A stretch of 64,000 bases of DNA. Source: Pseudomonadaceae bacterium. GTDB lineage: Bacteria; Pseudomonadota; Gammaproteobacteria; Pseudomonadales; Azotimanducaceae. Under the pieces are notes generated by a model. The model ran no database searches. It saw nothing but the letters and a program-made list of their open reading frames with translations, and was not told the DNA's origin. Location of the stretch: assembly GCA_024743435.1 (NCBI GenBank), contig JANSWO010000007.1, positions 1-64,000 of the forward strand, in the 5' to 3' direction. A program made the translations under genes and the position numbers. Every line of letters begins with the position of its first letter. Position 1 is the first letter of the stretch. Below are positions 29,270 through 42,167 of the stretch, piece by piece.

Positions 29270-30307
29270 ATGAGCGTCACGATCCACACGACATCACGCG
29301 GCGTTGAGTTTGTGCGCACGCCGGACGCGTGTTTCGCAGGCCTGCCAGACTTCCCGTATGAGCCGCACTATGTCGACCTTGACGGGCTACGCATGCACTA
29401 CGTCGACGAAGGTCCGCGAACGGGCCAGGTGATCGTGCTTCTACACGGTCAACCTGACTGGTCGTATCTCTATCGAAAGATGATTCCGGTGTTAGTTAAC
29501 GCTGGGTATCGCGTAATCGCGCCAGACATGATCGGCATGGGGCGCTCAGACAAGCCAACAAATATTCACACGCACACGGTAAATGCACACGCGGCCTGGT
29601 GGAGCCTCATGATCGAGGCGCTTGAGCTGCGAGATATCACGTTGTTCGCTCAGGACTGGGGCGGCTTTACGGGTCTGACCGTCGTGGCGCGACGGCCCGA
29701 GCGCTTCCGGCGGGTCATGATCTCGAACAGTGCTTTGTGGCTCATGCCGGAACCGATCCTTGATGTACCTCAGGGCATCAAGCGCGAGGACCATCCGGTC
29801 GATCCTGATGCCAAGATCAGGACCTTTGATCACTTCGCTGCCGACTGCAACGCGAAAGGCTTGATGAAGGAAGACATGTCGGAGTTCTTCCACGCTTGGA
29901 TGCTCTATGCGCTTACCGGCCCTGAGCTCAAACCCAGTGGCAACCTGCGCCGCGATTTCGGGGGGCTCACGCTGACTGACCATGAAGCCCGCGCCTACGA
30001 TGCGCCGTTCCCGAGTGAGATCTACATGACCGGTGTGCGCACGCTACCCAGCATGGGCTCGCTCATCGATGAGCGTCAAAACCTGCAAGACTGGGGGGCG
30101 CTTAAGCAGTTTGAGAAACCGTTTTTAACCGTGTTCGGCGATTTCGACAATCTCGTCGGTACTGAGAAAACCCAGAAAACGCTCATTGAGAATATTCCCG
30201 GAGCGGCTGGAATGCCGCACGATCGGCTACCCGCTGGCCACTTCATCCAGGAAACTCAAGGCCCGGAATTGGCGAAGCGGCTGGCCGATTTTATGGTGGC
30301 CACGTAA
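29270..30307 (+). CDS. Haloalkane-dehalogenase-like alpha/beta hydrolase
   Basis: A 345-residue DhlA/DhmA-type hydrolase. It has the N-terminal RTPDACFAGLPDFPYEPHYV, the oxyanion segment LLHGQPDWSYLYRK, the nucleophile motif LFAQDWGGFTG with Asp129-Trp130, and a late catalytic acid (Asp293 in FGDFDNLVG) and His324 in PAGHFIQE. The Gln-Pro after HG and the Trp after the nucleophile fit haloalkane dehalogenases. The halide-binding second Trp or Asn is not resolved here. The ATG at 29270 is the first good start. It forms a pair with the crotonase 13 bp downstream. An operator copy lies 320 bp upstream. Confidence 0.88.
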   Translation: MSVTIHTTSRGVEFVRTPDACFAGLPDFPYEPHYVDLDGLRMHYVDEGPRTGQVIVLLHGQPDWSYLYRKMIPVLVNAGYRVIAPDMIGMGRSDKPTNIHTHTVNAHAAWWSLMIEALELRDITLFAQDWGGFTGLTVVARRPERFRRVMISNSALWLMPEPILDVPQGIKREDHPVDPDAKIRTFDHFAADCNAKGLMKEDMSEFFHAWMLYALTGPELKPSGNLRRDFGGLTLTDHEARAYDAPFPSEIYMTGVRTLPSMGSLIDERQNLQDWGALKQFEKPFLTVFGDFDNLVGTEKTQKTLIENIPGAAGMPHDRLPAGHFIQETQGPELAKRLADFMVAT

Positions 30308-32618: not shown

Positions 32619-33239
32619 TCAGGTTAAGCGCGAGACCGCGTAGCGCAGCACCTTCTTTGCCCTAGCAATCGACAGCTGCTGATCGACGCGCAGGGTGATC
32701 CAGTACTCTATGCTGAGCGTTGCGTCGAGTGATTCGAGCAACAACGCGTCCGACGCCATCGCGCTTGGCAGGATCTCGCGCAGCCGCTGTCGTCGGCGGT
32801 GCACGTCCTTCCGCCGGGTGTTAGGGCTGCTTGTCGAGCGGAAGCGTTGGTACACCACCGAGATAAAGAGCGGCAGGAGGTACTCGTACAATCGAGCGCG
32901 GCGGCCGATCACCTCATCAAGCAGCAGTGGCCAGGCGTCGCCCCCATCAGATGGCTGCTGTGATGGTTGGCAGGCGGTTGGGAAGGGCTCATCCATCACA
33001 GCCCGCGCGTAGTCTTGGGCGTCCAGGATGATCGCAGTGTGTAGCGTCTCCCGATCAGGGAAGTGTCGAAACAGGGTTCGCCGCGTGATATCGGCCTGTG
33101 TGGCGATCGCCGCGACCGTTGGGTCAAAGTCACCCGCCAGTATCAGCTCGCGCGCAGCGTCTAAGATGCACCGGCGCGTGGATTGGGTGCGTTGATGGCG
33201 ACCATCGGCGCTGGCTGTTGTGCCCGCGTCAGCTCGCAC
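32619..33239 (-). CDS. TetR-family regulator
   Basis: A 206-residue regulator with a GTG start. The HTH is RCILDAARELILAGDFDPTV, AAIATQADITRRTLFRHFPDRETLHTAII. The ligand domain is rich in Arg. Its start overlaps the TauD-like stop by 11 bp, making it the third gene of the selenoprotein-TauD-TetR operon. By position it is a candidate for binding TAATG-N5-CATTA (copy at 35383 upstream of its own operon). Confidence 0.9.
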   Translation of the reverse strand: MRADAGTTASADGRHQRTQSTRRCILDAARELILAGDFDPTVAAIATQADITRRTLFRHFPDRETLHTAIILDAQDYARAVMDEPFPTACQPSQQPSDGGDAWPLLLDEVIGRRARLYEYLLPLFISVVYQRFRSTSSPNTRRKDVHRRRQRLREILPSAMASDALLLESLDATLSIEYWITLRVDQQLSIARAKKVLRYAVSRLT

Positions 33240-34083
33240 TGGCGTGTTTGCTCAGCACTTGGCAGCGCTTCATCAAGCGCCTGGCGTTCTCATTGAAGTC
33301 ATCGCGCCGGTGCAGCACCCGCCGGTTGTCCCAAATGATCAAGTCGTTTGGTTGCCAAACCTGACACCAGACGTTGTCGGGTGGGGCCGCGTAGCACCAC
33401 AGCTCGTCAAGTAATGCTTCGCTGTCCGCGAGCTCAAGCCCGGGTATGTACGCCCAGTCTCGTCGTCCGAGGTAAAGCATGTCGCGGCCGGTCTCCTCAT
33501 GAGTCCTGATGATCGGATGGCTAGCGCCGGGTGCATCACGCGGATCTTCGAAGGCCTCGAAGCCGGGCCGAAGTTTACCGACGCTGGTGTGAGCTGCGTC
33601 GTGCTTGATCGTGAGCTTGCTGGCCTGTTGTTTGAGATGCAGGGGCAGGGCTTCCAATGCTGCGCCTTGATCGGCGAAGTAGGTGTTTCCTCCCGCTGCT
33701 GGGATCTCGATGCCAAGCAGGACGCTGGCCGGCGGGGGCACCTCGGCGTAGGTCATATCAGAGTGCCAGGCCGCCTCGGAGTTGCCCAGGCCGCCAATCG
33801 GTTTGCCATCTTCGATGATGTTGGAGAGCTGAGTGACATAGCGGTTCTTGATCTTCTTGCGCGCCGCTTCGGGCAGGCGACCCATGGGGATCTCCTCGAG
33901 CGGGCCGAATCGAGCGCTGAATGTTTGTAGTTCGTCCTCGTTGAGCGGCTGATCGCGCAGGCGTAGAACGCCGTAGTCGAGCCACGCTTGATAAAGCTCG
34001 TTGAACTGATCGGTCGTCACCGTGCGGACATCAATGTCGCCAACCTCGGCAACAAAGTTGTTCCCCAGCGCTGTGATTTTCAT
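33229..34083 (-). CDS. TauD/TfdA-family Fe(II)/2-oxoglutarate dioxygenase
   Basis: A 284-residue dioxygenase. The facial triad is visible as HSD (His107, Asp109 in EAAWHSDMTYAEVPPPAS) and the distal His258 in NRRVLHRRDDF. The 2-oxoglutarate-binding Arg follows in ENARRLMKR. Substrates of the family include taurine and chlorophenoxyacetates; here it is unknown. The start codon overlaps the selenoprotein stop (ATGA), so the two are tightly coupled, with TetR downstream. It sits in the middle of the operon. Confidence 0.92.
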   Translation of the reverse strand: MKITALGNNFVAEVGDIDVRTVTTDQFNELYQAWLDYGVLRLRDQPLNEDELQTFSARFGPLEEIPMGRLPEAARKKIKNRYVTQLSNIIEDGKPIGGLGNSEAAWHSDMTYAEVPPPASVLLGIEIPAAGGNTYFADQGAALEALPLHLKQQASKLTIKHDAAHTSVGKLRPGFEAFEDPRDAPGASHPIIRTHEETGRDMLYLGRRDWAYIPGLELADSEALLDELWCYAAPPDNVWCQVWQPNDLIIWDNRRVLHRRDDFNENARRLMKRCQVLSKHASAS

Positions 34084-35276
34084 GGTGGCGTTTCCGTTGT
34101 TTGTTTGTCGTCGAGGGCATCACGGGGCAGCACGATCTGAGCGAAGGCCGACAGCTTTGGGTCTGCCTCGAACTGCTCGTAGAACACGCGCAGCGCGGCG
34201 CCCAGCTCAGTGGTGTACCACAGCGTTAAGTATGTCTGTCGGTGGTCGTACTCACCGGGCTGTGCGGTCAGCGCCTCGACGTAGAACGCCTTCGCATCCT
34301 CAATCGCAGCTTTGAACGCTGGCAGGTCAGCGGGGAGGCGAGCTGCATCCAAGTCTGCCGCTAGCCCGCTGATGATGTCCCGGATCGACGAAGTGGAAAC
34401 GCCCACGAGCGTTCTGCCATCTCGGCGTTGTCGCCCGATTTGGTACCAGGGTTCTAGGCTTGCGAGCTCTGCGTTCAGCCGGCCTTGCCAGGTAGTGTGG
34501 TCGGTTCGAAATGAAACCGGGCAGGCGGGGCTGTTGTCGAGCGGAACGCCTGGCGCGTCTTCGGGGTAGTCCGCGAGCACGGGACCGTCGGTTCGGTTCA
34601 GCAGATCCAAAGCTGACTCGATCACTCGATGTTGAAAAGCCGGATCGTTCGGCACGCCTAGGGGGCGTCCCAGCGGAAAGCTCACCCACAGTGATCGGGG
34701 TGGCTGCAGGCTGGCCGCGTTCTCGCGCACCAGGCTGATGCCGGTGGTCATGATGTCGGCACGCTCGAGGAAGTAACCGAGCGCGCTCACGGCGCGCGTG
34801 CAGTTGGGTCAGACAGGTGTCAAGAAGACTGCATCGACTCGATCTTTCTTAAGCAAGCCCGCTACCTGCCCGGCGGACGCTTCGTAGGCTTGGGGCAACA
34901 AGCCTGCGCCCATAAAACTGTAGTGAATGGATGCCAGCGAGCCGATCGAGCCGGCGCTCTCCAACTCCCGAAACCGATCGATCGGGAACACCAGGTTGAC
35001 GTCTTCGGCCAGGCCAGATCGATCAAAGTTTGCTGAGCTATGTGAAGTGATTAGGCCATCGGCGTTTGCTTCGTTTGGGATGGGCCGGAAACTCGAGTCG
35101 GTGAACCCAAAACCGGTGTCGTCTCGGACGTGAAGGCCGGCCGTGGTGATGAGTGCGATCCGCATCTCGGCGAGAGGTTTCGCTTGCGGCGTCCAGGCTG
35201 GAGGTCCCAGCGGCGGTAGCTCTTTGCTGAGCAGGTGTGCCCGTTCGTGCTCGGGTAAGTCGCTCAGTCGAACCAT
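34080..35276 (-). CDS. GrdB/PrdB-like reductase, probable selenoprotein (in-frame UGA)
   Basis: A 398-residue protein of the glycine/sarcosine/betaine (D-proline) reductase B family, if the UGA at 34811-34809 is read as selenocysteine. Upstream part: MVRLSDLPEHERAHLLSKEL, IALITTAGLHVRDDTGFGF, SHSSANFDRSGLAEDVNLVF, HYSFMGAGLLP and VDAVFLTPV. The UGA comes next, then PNCTRAVSALGYFLERADIM, the same frame with no shift. The redox motif is U-P-N-C; family relatives carry Sec or Cys there. The downstream part has LWVSFPLGRPLGVPNDPAFQ. A SECIS-like hairpin directly follows (34781-34797). The start ATG at 35276 gives the usual N-terminus; a GTG at 35321 is also possible. The stop overlaps the TauD-like start. 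No selA, selB or selC is in the window. A normal pipeline would call two broken genes here. Confidence 0.87.
34781..34797 (-). promoter_or_regulatory. SECIS-like hairpin after the UGA codon
   Basis: On the mRNA, 11 nt after UGA, a 6-bp stem GCGCGC/GCGCGC encloses a 5-nt loop CGUGA with GU at loop positions 2 and 3. The loop begins 17 nt after the UGA. Both the distance and the loop GU fit the bacterial SECIS pattern (as I know it from fdhF and related genes). The stem is coding (TRAVSAL), as usual in bacteria. Confidence 0.75.
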
Positions 35277-35382
35277 GCTGTGCAATCCACTACTGCGTTT
35301 CACTCGTGGAAGTAATGACACCTATAGTGCCAATAGATCAGTGTAGTTTCCAGCTCGAGAGCGTGCCGCGGCCGAGCTTGGT

Positions 35383-35436: not shown

Positions 35437-35832
35437 ATGAATCGACTAGCTTGGATCGCGACAGCCGTGTTGGCTTTGCTGTCTACCCACGCTGCAAGTG
35501 CTAGCGGCATAGAGGGGCTATGGGACAATGAGGCCAATCCGGTCTCGATGGTGATCTTGGTTTCTGATGACGGTGTTGCTACCGGTAAAGTCGCGCAGAA
35601 CGAACAGAACCCGGAATCTGTGGGCCGGTTGATCTTGAAGTCAGTCGTTGCCGACCCGGGCGACAATAAGCTTTGGCGTGGCCAGGTGTTTGCAGCACGC
35701 CTCGGCGAGTTTCGAGATGCCGAGGTTCGCCTGGTCGATGACGAGCGGCTGGAGATCTCGGTTAAAGTTGGTTTCCTGTCCAGAACAGTGGGTTGGACCC
35801 GCCAAGCAACACAAGCGAGCGAACATGACTGA
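35437..35832 (+). CDS. DUF2147-like periplasmic protein
   Basis: A 131-residue exported protein. Signal peptide MNRLAWIATAVLALLSTHAASAS, then a small beta-domain with GIEGLWDNEANPVSMVILVS and NKLWRGQVFAARLGEFRDAE, which resembles the DUF2147 lipocalin-like fold. I chose the ATG at 35437 (AGGAG six bases upstream). Its end overlaps the start of the TauD-like gene by 8 bp. Operator copy 2 lies 40 bp upstream. Confidence 0.72.
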   Translation: MNRLAWIATAVLALLSTHAASASGIEGLWDNEANPVSMVILVSDDGVATGKVAQNEQNPESVGRLILKSVVADPGDNKLWRGQVFAARLGEFRDAEVRLVDDERLEISVKVGFLSRTVGWTRQATQASEHD

Positions 35833-36856
35833 CACCTGCGGTAAACCCATTTCAGATCGACGAGCTTGGTGTAGTGCTGAGCTAGCCCGCAATTCGGATT
35901 GGGTGACTGAACTCTCCCCAAATCAAATCGACTCCTTGAACGCGCTGGCAGAAACGTTGCCCCAGGACAGTGCCGATTGGTTGGAGGGTGATGCCCGTGA
36001 TCGGTTCAGCGAACCCGCCGCTGAGTTGATCGAGCAAGCCAGTGCCGAGCTCGGTTCAGGCAGAGGCTTCGTGCTGTTTCGAGGCCTTGATGCGAGTGAT
36101 CCCGAGCGTCTGCGCCGGGTGTTCTGGAGCATCGGCACGGCGCTGGGTCAACCCGTGATGCAGAACGCACGAGGCGAGGTCTTGAGTATCGTCTCCGATC
36201 GTTTTGGCGGCGCCGAGCGTGGGGTGGATACACGCGGCTACGAGAGCAACGATGAGCTGCGATTTCACTGCGACGGCGGCGACTGCATTGGCATGAGCTG
36301 CGTACGTCAGGCGGCCGAGGGTGGGGAAAACGGTCTCGTTAGCTTGTTTTCGATCTACAACGAGGTGCTCGCCAGCTTCCCAGAGCATCTCGATGCGCTG
36401 CTTAACGGCTATCCGCTCTACGCGCGCAAAGAGCGCGGTGATGCGCAGTCGACCAAGAACCTCGGAAAGGTGAATGCCGCGCGTTTGCCGGTGTTCGCCT
36501 GGGAAGGCGCGCGCATGAGTGCCTGGCTTAACATTCAGCTTGCCGAGCTTGCAGCCGAAGTCTCCGGGCAGGCGTTTAGTGAGGAGGAGCGAGCCGCGCT
36601 CACGTGTGTTGAGGAGATCGCGAACCGACCGGAGATGCAGCTCACTTTTTTGCAACAGCCGGGTGATGTGCTGTTCATCAACAATTTGGCGGTGATGCAT
36701 CGCAGGCAGCGCTACATCGACGCCGAAGGCGACGAGGCTAAGCGGATGCTTTACCGCATGTGGATCAACCTGCACGAGTCTCAAGGCCTCGTCGCCACCC
36801 ACGCGGTGCTGCGACAAGGCATACGAGGGCCGAAGCCGGTGATCGTTGCGGCGTAA
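35825..36856 (+). CDS. TauD/TfdA-like dioxygenase (second copy)
   Basis: A 343-residue dioxygenase-like protein from the ATG at 35825. The triad reads HCD (His148, Asp150 in ELRFHCDGGDCIGM) with a distal His in LAVMHRRQRYIDAEG, and a following Arg in RMLYRMWINLHE for 2-oxoglutarate. It shares the fold with the copy at 33229 but differs strongly in sequence. It overlaps the DUF2147-like gene by 8 bp, so it is probably translated with it. The TetR pseudogene follows 9 bp later. Confidence 0.88.
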   Translation: MTDTCGKPISDRRAWCSAELARNSDWVTELSPNQIDSLNALAETLPQDSADWLEGDARDRFSEPAAELIEQASAELGSGRGFVLFRGLDASDPERLRRVFWSIGTALGQPVMQNARGEVLSIVSDRFGGAERGVDTRGYESNDELRFHCDGGDCIGMSCVRQAAEGGENGLVSLFSIYNEVLASFPEHLDALLNGYPLYARKERGDAQSTKNLGKVNAARLPVFAWEGARMSAWLNIQLAELAAEVSGQAFSEEERAALTCVEEIANRPEMQLTFLQQPGDVLFINNLAVMHRRQRYIDAEGDEAKRMLYRMWINLHESQGLVATHAVLRQGIRGPKPVIVAA

Positions 36857-41114: not shown

Positions 41115-42167
41115 ATGTTCGATGGCCGCTACGTGTTGTGGGGTGGTGAGCACAGCCTGTTCACCCGAAAACTCCAGGCGATGCTCAATTACTTGGGTGT
41201 GGACTACGAGTTCAAACTCAAGTCGGGCGATGCGGGTGAGCGCATGGAGGCTCGGCTGGGAACCCATTTCATACCCGGGCTTGAGACCCCTGAGGGCTGG
41301 TTTGTACACGACACCACACCGATCGGGCTAATGTTGAGCGCAAAGTACCCGGAGCGCTCGGTTGTGCCATCGGCGCCGGTACAGCGCATCGCATCACATC
41401 TGTTGGAAGATTGGGCCGATGAGTGGTTCGGTCGTTACGCCATCAGCAGTCGCTGGTGTTATCCGCATAACATCGATCACGTTGCCATCGGGTTCTACGC
41501 CAACTTCATCGGCAAGTATGAGCGCCAGGGTCTCACCCCGGAGGAGCTCGTCGAGGCGCGTAAGCGAATCGAGATCGTGCGTGATCAGTTTGGTCTCAAT
41601 GCCTGTACTAACCGGGGCTGCGGACCGGATCAGGCCGTGCATGTCCGCCGGGACTTCGAGCAGCTCATGGTCCATGTCGAGCGTCATTACACCGAGCATC
41701 CGTTTCTGCTGGGTGATCGGGCGAGTCTTGGCGACTTCACGTTTGCGGGGTTGTTCAAAGCGCACATCGCTTCAGACCCGGAGCCGCGAAGCTGGATTCT
41801 CGGTTGTGCGCCGAAGATGCTCGAGCTTATGGATCAGGTGTTTGAAGCGCGCGCTGGTGAAGCCCAATACCTGCCAGACGATGCGCTGCCGCCAACGCTG
41901 ATGCCTTTCTTTGAGCATATGCGCGATAGCTATCATGCTTTTTTGCGCGTATCCCGCGACGCGCTGGCGGCGGGAGAGAAGTGGTGCGAGGTAGATCTCG
42001 GTGAGGGGCCGGTTCGCATGCGCTCCCTCAAGTACAGTGAGATCAGCCGGTGCCACATCAAAGGTGAGATTGAGAGTCTGTCACCGGCAGATCGCGCCGC
42101 CGTCGATTCAGCCCTGGGATCGCTAGGCGTGCTCGACGCCTATCTATTGCCCGCCGTATTGCCATAG
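41115..42167 (+). CDS. Long GST-like protein
   Basis: A 350-residue protein with a thioredoxin/GST N-terminus (YVLWGGEHSLFTRKLQAMLN, then a GLETPEGWFVHDT loop) and a helical GST C-terminal region (FEQLMVHVERHYTEHPFLLGDRASLGDFTFAGL). The length exceeds normal GSTs (~220) by a C-terminal extension of about 110 residues. Related to the gene at 43974. It starts 2 bp after the previous gene and is followed by a sulfatase 9 bp downstream. Confidence 0.8.
   Translation: MFDGRYVLWGGEHSLFTRKLQAMLNYLGVDYEFKLKSGDAGERMEARLGTHFIPGLETPEGWFVHDTTPIGLMLSAKYPERSVVPSAPVQRIASHLLEDWADEWFGRYAISSRWCYPHNIDHVAIGFYANFIGKYERQGLTPEELVEARKRIEIVRDQFGLNACTNRGCGPDQAVHVRRDFEQLMVHVERHYTEHPFLLGDRASLGDFTFAGLFKAHIASDPEPRSWILGCAPKMLELMDQVFEARAGEAQYLPDDALPPTLMPFFEHMRDSYHAFLRVSRDALAAGEKWCEVDLGEGPVRMRSLKYSEISRCHIKGEIESLSPADRAAVDSALGSLGVLDAYLLPAVLP

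What the first reader, a model, noticed from the sequence alone, without database searches (positions are those of the whole stretch)
34080..35276. Selenocysteine-coding gene hidden as two broken ORFs (GrdB/PrdB family)
One continuous minus-strand frame is split only by UGA (34811-34809). It lies in U-P-N-C, where this family uses Sec or Cys, and both halves belong to the same GrdB/PrdB-like protein. A hairpin with stem GCGCGC and loop CGUGA begins 11 nt after the UGA, matching bacterial SECIS distance and loop GU. Simple nonsense mutation would not predict all three.
Basis: partly seen in the sequence, partly recalled or inferred. Interest (0 to 1): 0.88.

Follow-up and report, generated by a model that had tools for sequence, protein, structure and literature searches.

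The report
Hidden selenocysteine gene in marine bacterium
A gene that looks broken by a stop codon is really an intact gene for a selenium-containing protein of an already known marine family, but its gene neighbours and missing partners suggest it is not the D-proline reductase subunit it has been named after.

Summary
The minus-strand frame 35276-34080 (398 aa) is interrupted only by UGA 34811-34809, in U-P-N-C. Of 78 named homologues with this column readable, 75 carry TGA and 3 carry Cys. The hairpin fits the bacterial SECIS model and covaries: its apical GU is in 105/105 Sec forms and 0/3 Cys forms. The genome holds tRNA-Sec, selA, selB and selD; genomes of the three Cys forms show no selB above cut-off. 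Selenocysteine is therefore near certain, though not shown biochemically. The kind is known: Sec-containing 'PrdB' has been reported from marine metagenomes since 2005. What differs from the published label: the protein scores 126 bits against the PrdB equivalog cut-off of 300 (true PrdBs 310 and 425), carries an extra ~150-aa helical C-terminal domain, and the genome has no match to the pyruvoyl partner family (PrdA/GrdE) or GrdA, while clostridial controls ring. It overlaps by ATGA with a TauD-type 2-oxoglutarate dioxygenase, adjacent in 24 of 30 testable loci of its clade, including all three Cys forms. I infer a TetR-regulated aerobic module of a seleno-reductase and a dioxygenase; the substrate is unknown.

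The parts
34080..35276 (-). Selenoprotein CDS, PrdB/GrdB superfamily, 398 aa with Sec156; ATG start, TGA stop
   Evidence: N-terminus shared with homologues (MVRL)
34809..34811 (-). In-frame UGA read as selenocysteine
   Evidence: TGA in 75 of 78 named homologues, Cys in 3; aligned with the UGA of clostridial PrdB
34800..34811 (-). U-P-N-C redox motif; the Cys is the presumed resolving residue
   Evidence: Cys invariant in A1 and in the motif of all 78
34781..34797 (-). bSECIS hairpin: 6-bp stem GCGCGC/GCGCGC with loop CGUGA; loop starts 17 nt after the UGA
   Evidence: model constraints from PMC13188914
34593..35213 (-). PrdB-like alpha/beta domain
   Evidence: TIGR04483 match to residues 37-243 of P0001, 126 bits; AlphaFold model pLDDT 84
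34083..34529 (-). C-terminal helical domain, about 149 aa, no Pfam family
   Evidence: pLDDT 92; no Foldseek match in the PDB at E<=0.001
33229..34083 (-). TauD/TfdA-type Fe(II)/2-oxoglutarate dioxygenase, translationally coupled (ATGA overlap 34083-34080)
   Evidence: PF02668 9.1e-57; H-x-D and distal His present in the translation; adjacent in 24 of 30 testable clade loci
32619..33239 (-). TetR-family regulator, overlapping the end of the dioxygenase gene; presumed regulator of the operon
   Evidence: PF00440; a TetR homologue lies next to the pair in several relatives

Best explanation
The gene encodes one 398-aa selenoprotein. SelB with Sec-tRNA(Sec) binds the hairpin just after UGA 34811-34809 and inserts selenocysteine at residue 156 (evidence: comparative and genomic; not biochemical). 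Sec156 and Cys159 form a UxxC redox pair at the start of a helix in a PrdB-like alpha/beta domain (model). The protein is a distant homologue of D-proline reductase PrdB and works without the pyruvoyl subunit. Inferred, less certain (about 0.4): together with the co-transcribed TauD-type dioxygenase, and under TetR control, it forms a two-enzyme aerobic module in which the selenolate attacks a polar bond of a small organic substrate or intermediate, Cys159 resolves the selenium adduct, and a thioredoxin-type donor restores the pair. The substrate is unknown. The stated confidence is for the selenoprotein assignment with 'not a D-proline reductase subunit'.
For: 75 of 78 named homologues have TGA and 3 Cys at the column. 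In 132 of 151 genomes of the family a homologue was found, and nearly all listed matches have exactly one in-frame TGA. Hairpin: apical GU 105/105 Sec and 0/3 Cys; 90.6% of cells paired, 17 double-sided changes, 0/500 shuffles reach the covariation score, slid controls far lower; stem pairs 5.54 observed against 3.85 under synonymous resampling. Machinery: tRNA-Sec 77 bits, SelB 363 bits, SelD 260 bits, SelA 524 bits. Seven of eight Sec-form genomes tested have SelB over cut-off, the eighth a fragment at a contig edge; the three Cys-form genomes have none over cut-off. Not PrdB: 126 bits against cut-off 300, true PrdBs 310 and 425; PF09338 and GrdA without match while clostridial records ring. 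TauD linkage. Cys forms nest inside the Sec clade.
Against: No biochemical or expression data. The hairpin of the single window sequence is not better than dinucleotide shuffles (z -1.15). The functional half is inference: TauD is adjacent only in the gene's own clade and three Burkholderiales-type records, six testable loci of the clade lack it, and most more distant relatives have other neighbours. The genome is a draft of 19 contigs at 98.45% completeness, so absence of a PrdA/GrdE homologue is strong but not absolute.
Confidence: 0.93

Rival explanations
1. The UGA is a nonsense mutation or sequencing error, so the gene is a pseudogene split in two.
For: Standard ORF calling shows two ORFs, 34809-35321 and 34080-34790.
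Against: The same UGA is at the same column in 75 of 78 named homologues from many genera and classes, with Cys in the other three; both halves are conserved; GC3 is alike on both sides, 0.66 and 0.72, TauD 0.72.
Confidence: 0.01
2. UGA is a true stop; the two halves are separate proteins made by termination and restart at GTG 34790.
For: A GTG start lies 6 codons after the UGA.
Against: The active-site motif U-P-N-C would be cut; Cys forms are single continuous proteins (L093, L094, L103); the hairpin covaries and its GU loop is lost in the Cys forms.
Confidence: 0.01
3. It is a genuine PrdB, the selenoprotein subunit of D-proline reductase, as named in the marine metagenome papers.
For: 34% identity to Terrisporobacter PrdB over residues 30-247 with the Sec codons aligned; TIGR04483 is the best NCBIfam hit, E 1.5e-36.
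Against: 126 bits against a cut-off of 300, positive controls pass; 398 aa against about 240 aa; no PF09338 (PrdA/GrdE) in the own genome or in five other homologue-bearing genomes, controls ring; linked to an oxygen-using dioxygenase instead.
Confidence: 0.05
4. It is a general selenol/thiol oxidoreductase (repair or peroxide defence), not part of a catabolic pathway; the TauD linkage is incidental co-regulation.
For: UxxC motif; the wider family occurs with many different neighbours.
Against: TauD linkage is kept across Pseudomonadales, Rhodobiaceae and a Limnohabitans-type MAG, in Cys forms too, and occurs in the opposite gene order in three Burkholderiales-type records; one Cys-form locus continues into TctC, TPP enzyme and CoA-transferase III genes.
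Confidence: 0.25

Closest known systems
Marine metagenome 'Proline reductase PrdB' selenoprotein family (Sargasso Sea 2005, PMC1088965; GOS 2008, PMC2398784)
   Same: PF07355/PrdB relatives with UxxC, Sec in most members and Cys in some, marine; very probably the same family, but the papers' sequences were not compared here
   Different: Those papers give the D-proline reductase function by homology and, in the passages read, no operon, partner or domain analysis
Clostridial D-proline reductase PrdB (TIGR04483)
   Same: Homologous alpha/beta domain (34% identity), Sec codon at the aligned position, UxxC
   Different: About 240 aa, UGTC motif, works with pyruvoyl PrdA; here 398 aa, UPNC, extra C-terminal domain, no PrdA homologue found, TauD partner
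GrdB/GrdF/GrdH of glycine, sarcosine and betaine reductase (PF07355)
   Same: Same superfamily and Sec motif region
   Different: Far below every equivalog cut-off; no GrdE or GrdA found in the genome
FarB, the GrdB-like protein of the fluoroacetate operon in Cloacibacillus (PMC10838667)
   Same: GrdB relative in an operon of its own, proposed to attack a C-F bond by the selenolate: suggests that the superfamily reaches beyond amines
   Different: Anaerobe, has a GrdE-type partner; no dioxygenase

Membership tests
Bacterial selenoprotein | In-frame UGA at a column with Sec or Cys in homologues | tested here: met
   75 TGA and 3 Cys of 78
Bacterial selenoprotein | bSECIS: 3-9 nt loop, 4-16 bp stem, G in the first two loop positions, 16-37 nt from UGA to loop, MFE <= -7.5 | tested here: met
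   Loop 5 nt, stem 6 bp, G at position 2, spacing 17 nt, MFE -11.7 for the hairpin and -14.9 for 39-42 nt (model)
Bacterial selenoprotein | selA, selB, selC and selD in the genome | tested here: met
Bacterial selenoprotein | Selenium physically present in the protein | not testable with these tools
   Needs Se-75 labelling or mass spectrometry
GRDB superfamily PF07355 | Profile score over the gathering cut-off | tested here: met
   38.2 bits against 22
D-proline reductase PrdB (TIGR04483 equivalog) | Score over the curated cut-off of 300 bits | tested here: not met
   126 bits; controls 310 and 425
D-proline reductase PrdB (TIGR04483 equivalog) | Pyruvoyl partner PrdA (PF09338) encoded in the genome | tested here: not met
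   No match in G000 and five other genomes; two clostridial records ring
Glycine/betaine/sarcosine reductase GrdB | Equivalog score and GrdE and GrdA partners | tested here: not met

The most novel reading that the evidence does not exclude
The widespread marine 'PrdB' selenoproteins of this long UPNC type are not amino-acid reductases at all but pyruvoyl-independent seleno-reductases that work in oxygen-using bacteria together with a 2-oxoglutarate dioxygenase, an undescribed Sec-dependent catabolic route for a small organic compound.
Probability: 0.4. Interest if true: 0.68.

Novelty: new member of a known kind. Interest (0 to 1): 0.42.

Why it matters
As a gene it is one more member of a known selenoprotein family that standard annotation splits or truncates. 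What could matter is the label: one of the most abundant selenoprotein families in the surface-ocean surveys was assigned D-proline reductase, an anaerobic Stickland enzyme. For the long UPNC form that assignment does not fit the missing pyruvoyl partner, the extra domain and the dioxygenase operon. The dioxygenase gives a concrete, testable lead to what it really does.

Tried and rejected
PDB by sequence: no relative of the protein at E<=1. Whole-model Foldseek gave only photocobilins at E 7.6e-4 with TM 0.25; VIA-align best Z 8.1 (microcystinase C) amid many unrelated Rossmann-like rows, so no functional reading was taken. The C-terminal domain alone: no PDB match at E<=0.001; no Pfam family; this does not prove a new fold. 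The first PF09338 search had no ringing control and was repeated with clostridial records. Neighbours of the more distant clade are mixed, with no shared partner; TctC-type receptors recur in nine loci, but from general knowledge these are very common in Burkholderiales, so I give them little weight. One treekit run failed on overlapping labels and was replaced by FastTree. No paper in the library was found that links this family with a dioxygenase; absence there is weak evidence.

Full report
Observation. On the minus strand the frame 35276-34080 is open for 398 residues except for one UGA at 34811-34809. Standard ORF calling splits it into 34809-35321 and 34080-34790. Sec is residue 156.

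Homologues. Among 151 genomes of the same family, 132 hold a match, and nearly all listed matches carry exactly one in-frame TGA, several genomes having two or more such genes. In 80 named loci from public genomes the column could be read in 78: TGA in 75, TGC in one (L093) and TGT in two (L094, L103). No other residue occurs. The motif is U-P-x-C, mostly UPNC; Cys159 is present in all of them. In a FastTree of these sequences the Cys forms sit inside the Sec clade, next to the Sec form L090, which suggests Sec was replaced by Cys.

SECIS. The hairpin (GCGCGC, loop CGUGA, GCGCGC) starts 11 nt after the UGA; its loop starts 17 nt after. The published bSECIS constraints (loop 3-9 nt, stem 4-16 bp, early G in the loop, spacing 16-37 nt, MFE at most -7.5; PMC13188914) are met. 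The single sequence is not outstanding against shuffles (z -1.15), so the comparative tests carry the case: apical GU in 105/105 Sec forms and 0/3 Cys forms (rows there come from two overlapping genome collections, so some species count twice); in 46 distinct sequences 90.6% of cells pair, 17 cells change on both sides, no shuffle of 500 reaches the covariation score, and sliding the partner destroys it. L048, for example, has GUCCAC-UGUGA-GUGGAC. Synonymous resampling that keeps each protein gives 3.85 pairs instead of the 5.54 seen. Codon choice is also tighter in the hairpin codons +5 to +9 than around them.

Machinery. tRNA-Sec C14:124772-124860 (77 bits; ARAGORN anticodon tca), SelB C14:120394-122208 (363 bits), SelA just upstream of it (524 bits), and SelD at C14:128443-129330 as the C-terminal part of a 728-aa fusion. 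SelB is over cut-off in 121 of 151 family genomes. Genomes of the three Cys forms have no SelB over cut-off, while seven of eight Sec-form genomes have; in the eighth, a MAG, a SelB-like fragment stands at a contig edge.

What the protein is. It is a GRDB-superfamily member (PF07355) whose first ~240 residues match PrdB (34% identity to Terrisporobacter PrdB, whose own UGA aligns with this one). It scores 126 bits for the PrdB equivalog, cut-off 300; two clostridial PrdBs score 310 and 425. A further ~149 residues form a confidently predicted helical domain (pLDDT 92) without Pfam family or PDB match at E<=0.001. The pyruvoyl-subunit family PF09338 has no match in the own genome or in five other genomes that hold the gene, and rings in both clostridial control records; GrdA likewise is not found, with a ringing control. 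So it is not filed as PrdB or GrdB.

Operon. The stop overlaps the start of a TauD/TfdA-type dioxygenase (ATGA, 34083-34080), whose end overlaps a TetR regulator. Among the 80 loci, 30 of the closest clade have enough downstream DNA; 24 of them have this dioxygenase next, at 61-76% identity, including all three Cys forms; six do not. Three Burkholderiales-type records have a TauD gene just upstream instead. A TetR homologue is near the pair in several relatives. In the Cys-form locus L093 the pair is followed by TctC, a TPP enzyme and a CoA-transferase III, which looks catabolic.

Mechanism. Supported by comparison: UGA read as Sec, SECIS, UxxC, coupling to TauD. Inferred: selenolate attack on a substrate bond, resolution by Cys159, recycling by a thiol donor, and a joint pathway with the dioxygenase. 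GrdB relatives acting on non-amines have a precedent proposed for fluoroacetate (PMC10838667).

Novelty. Sec-containing 'PrdB' proteins with UxxC were listed in the Sargasso Sea (42 sequences, PMC1088965) and Global Ocean Sampling data (235, PMC2398784). This gene is a new member of that kind. The dioxygenase operon, the missing pyruvoyl partner and the extra domain were not found described in the papers searched, and they argue against the D-proline reductase label for this form.

Noticed in passing
G000:C5:136237-137328 (L070:8238-9329): A second PrdB-like gene in the same genome with one in-frame TGA, 40% identical, without a TauD neighbour among the ORFs listed around it.
   Followed up: partly
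L009:13557-15743: SelD is fused to an N-terminal pyridine-nucleotide-disulfide oxidoreductase-type domain (TIGR03169, 409 bits; SelD part 256 bits).
   Followed up: partly
window 34788-34790 (codon +7 after the UGA): The Val invariant in Sec forms supplies the GU of the SECIS loop and becomes Thr or Ala in the three Cys forms, so its conservation is probably an RNA constraint, not a protein one.
   Followed up: yes
window 35648-36856 (+): A second TauD-family gene lies upstream on the other strand; a homologue is near the locus in L056 and weakly in L066.
   Followed up: no
window 29270-30307 and 41115-42167: An alpha/beta hydrolase and a GST-like protein whose homologues recur near the PrdB-like/TauD pair in L055, L059 and L060; may be background abundance.
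   Followed up: no
L106, L139, L118: MAG records titled Bordetella parapertussis or Poribacteria hold loci that sit among environmental relatives of this family; the titles or binning look doubtful.
   Followed up: no
matches of about 300-390 aa at 30-36% identity: A shorter PrdB-like paralogue type, also with one in-frame TGA, is common across the family's genomes.
   Followed up: no
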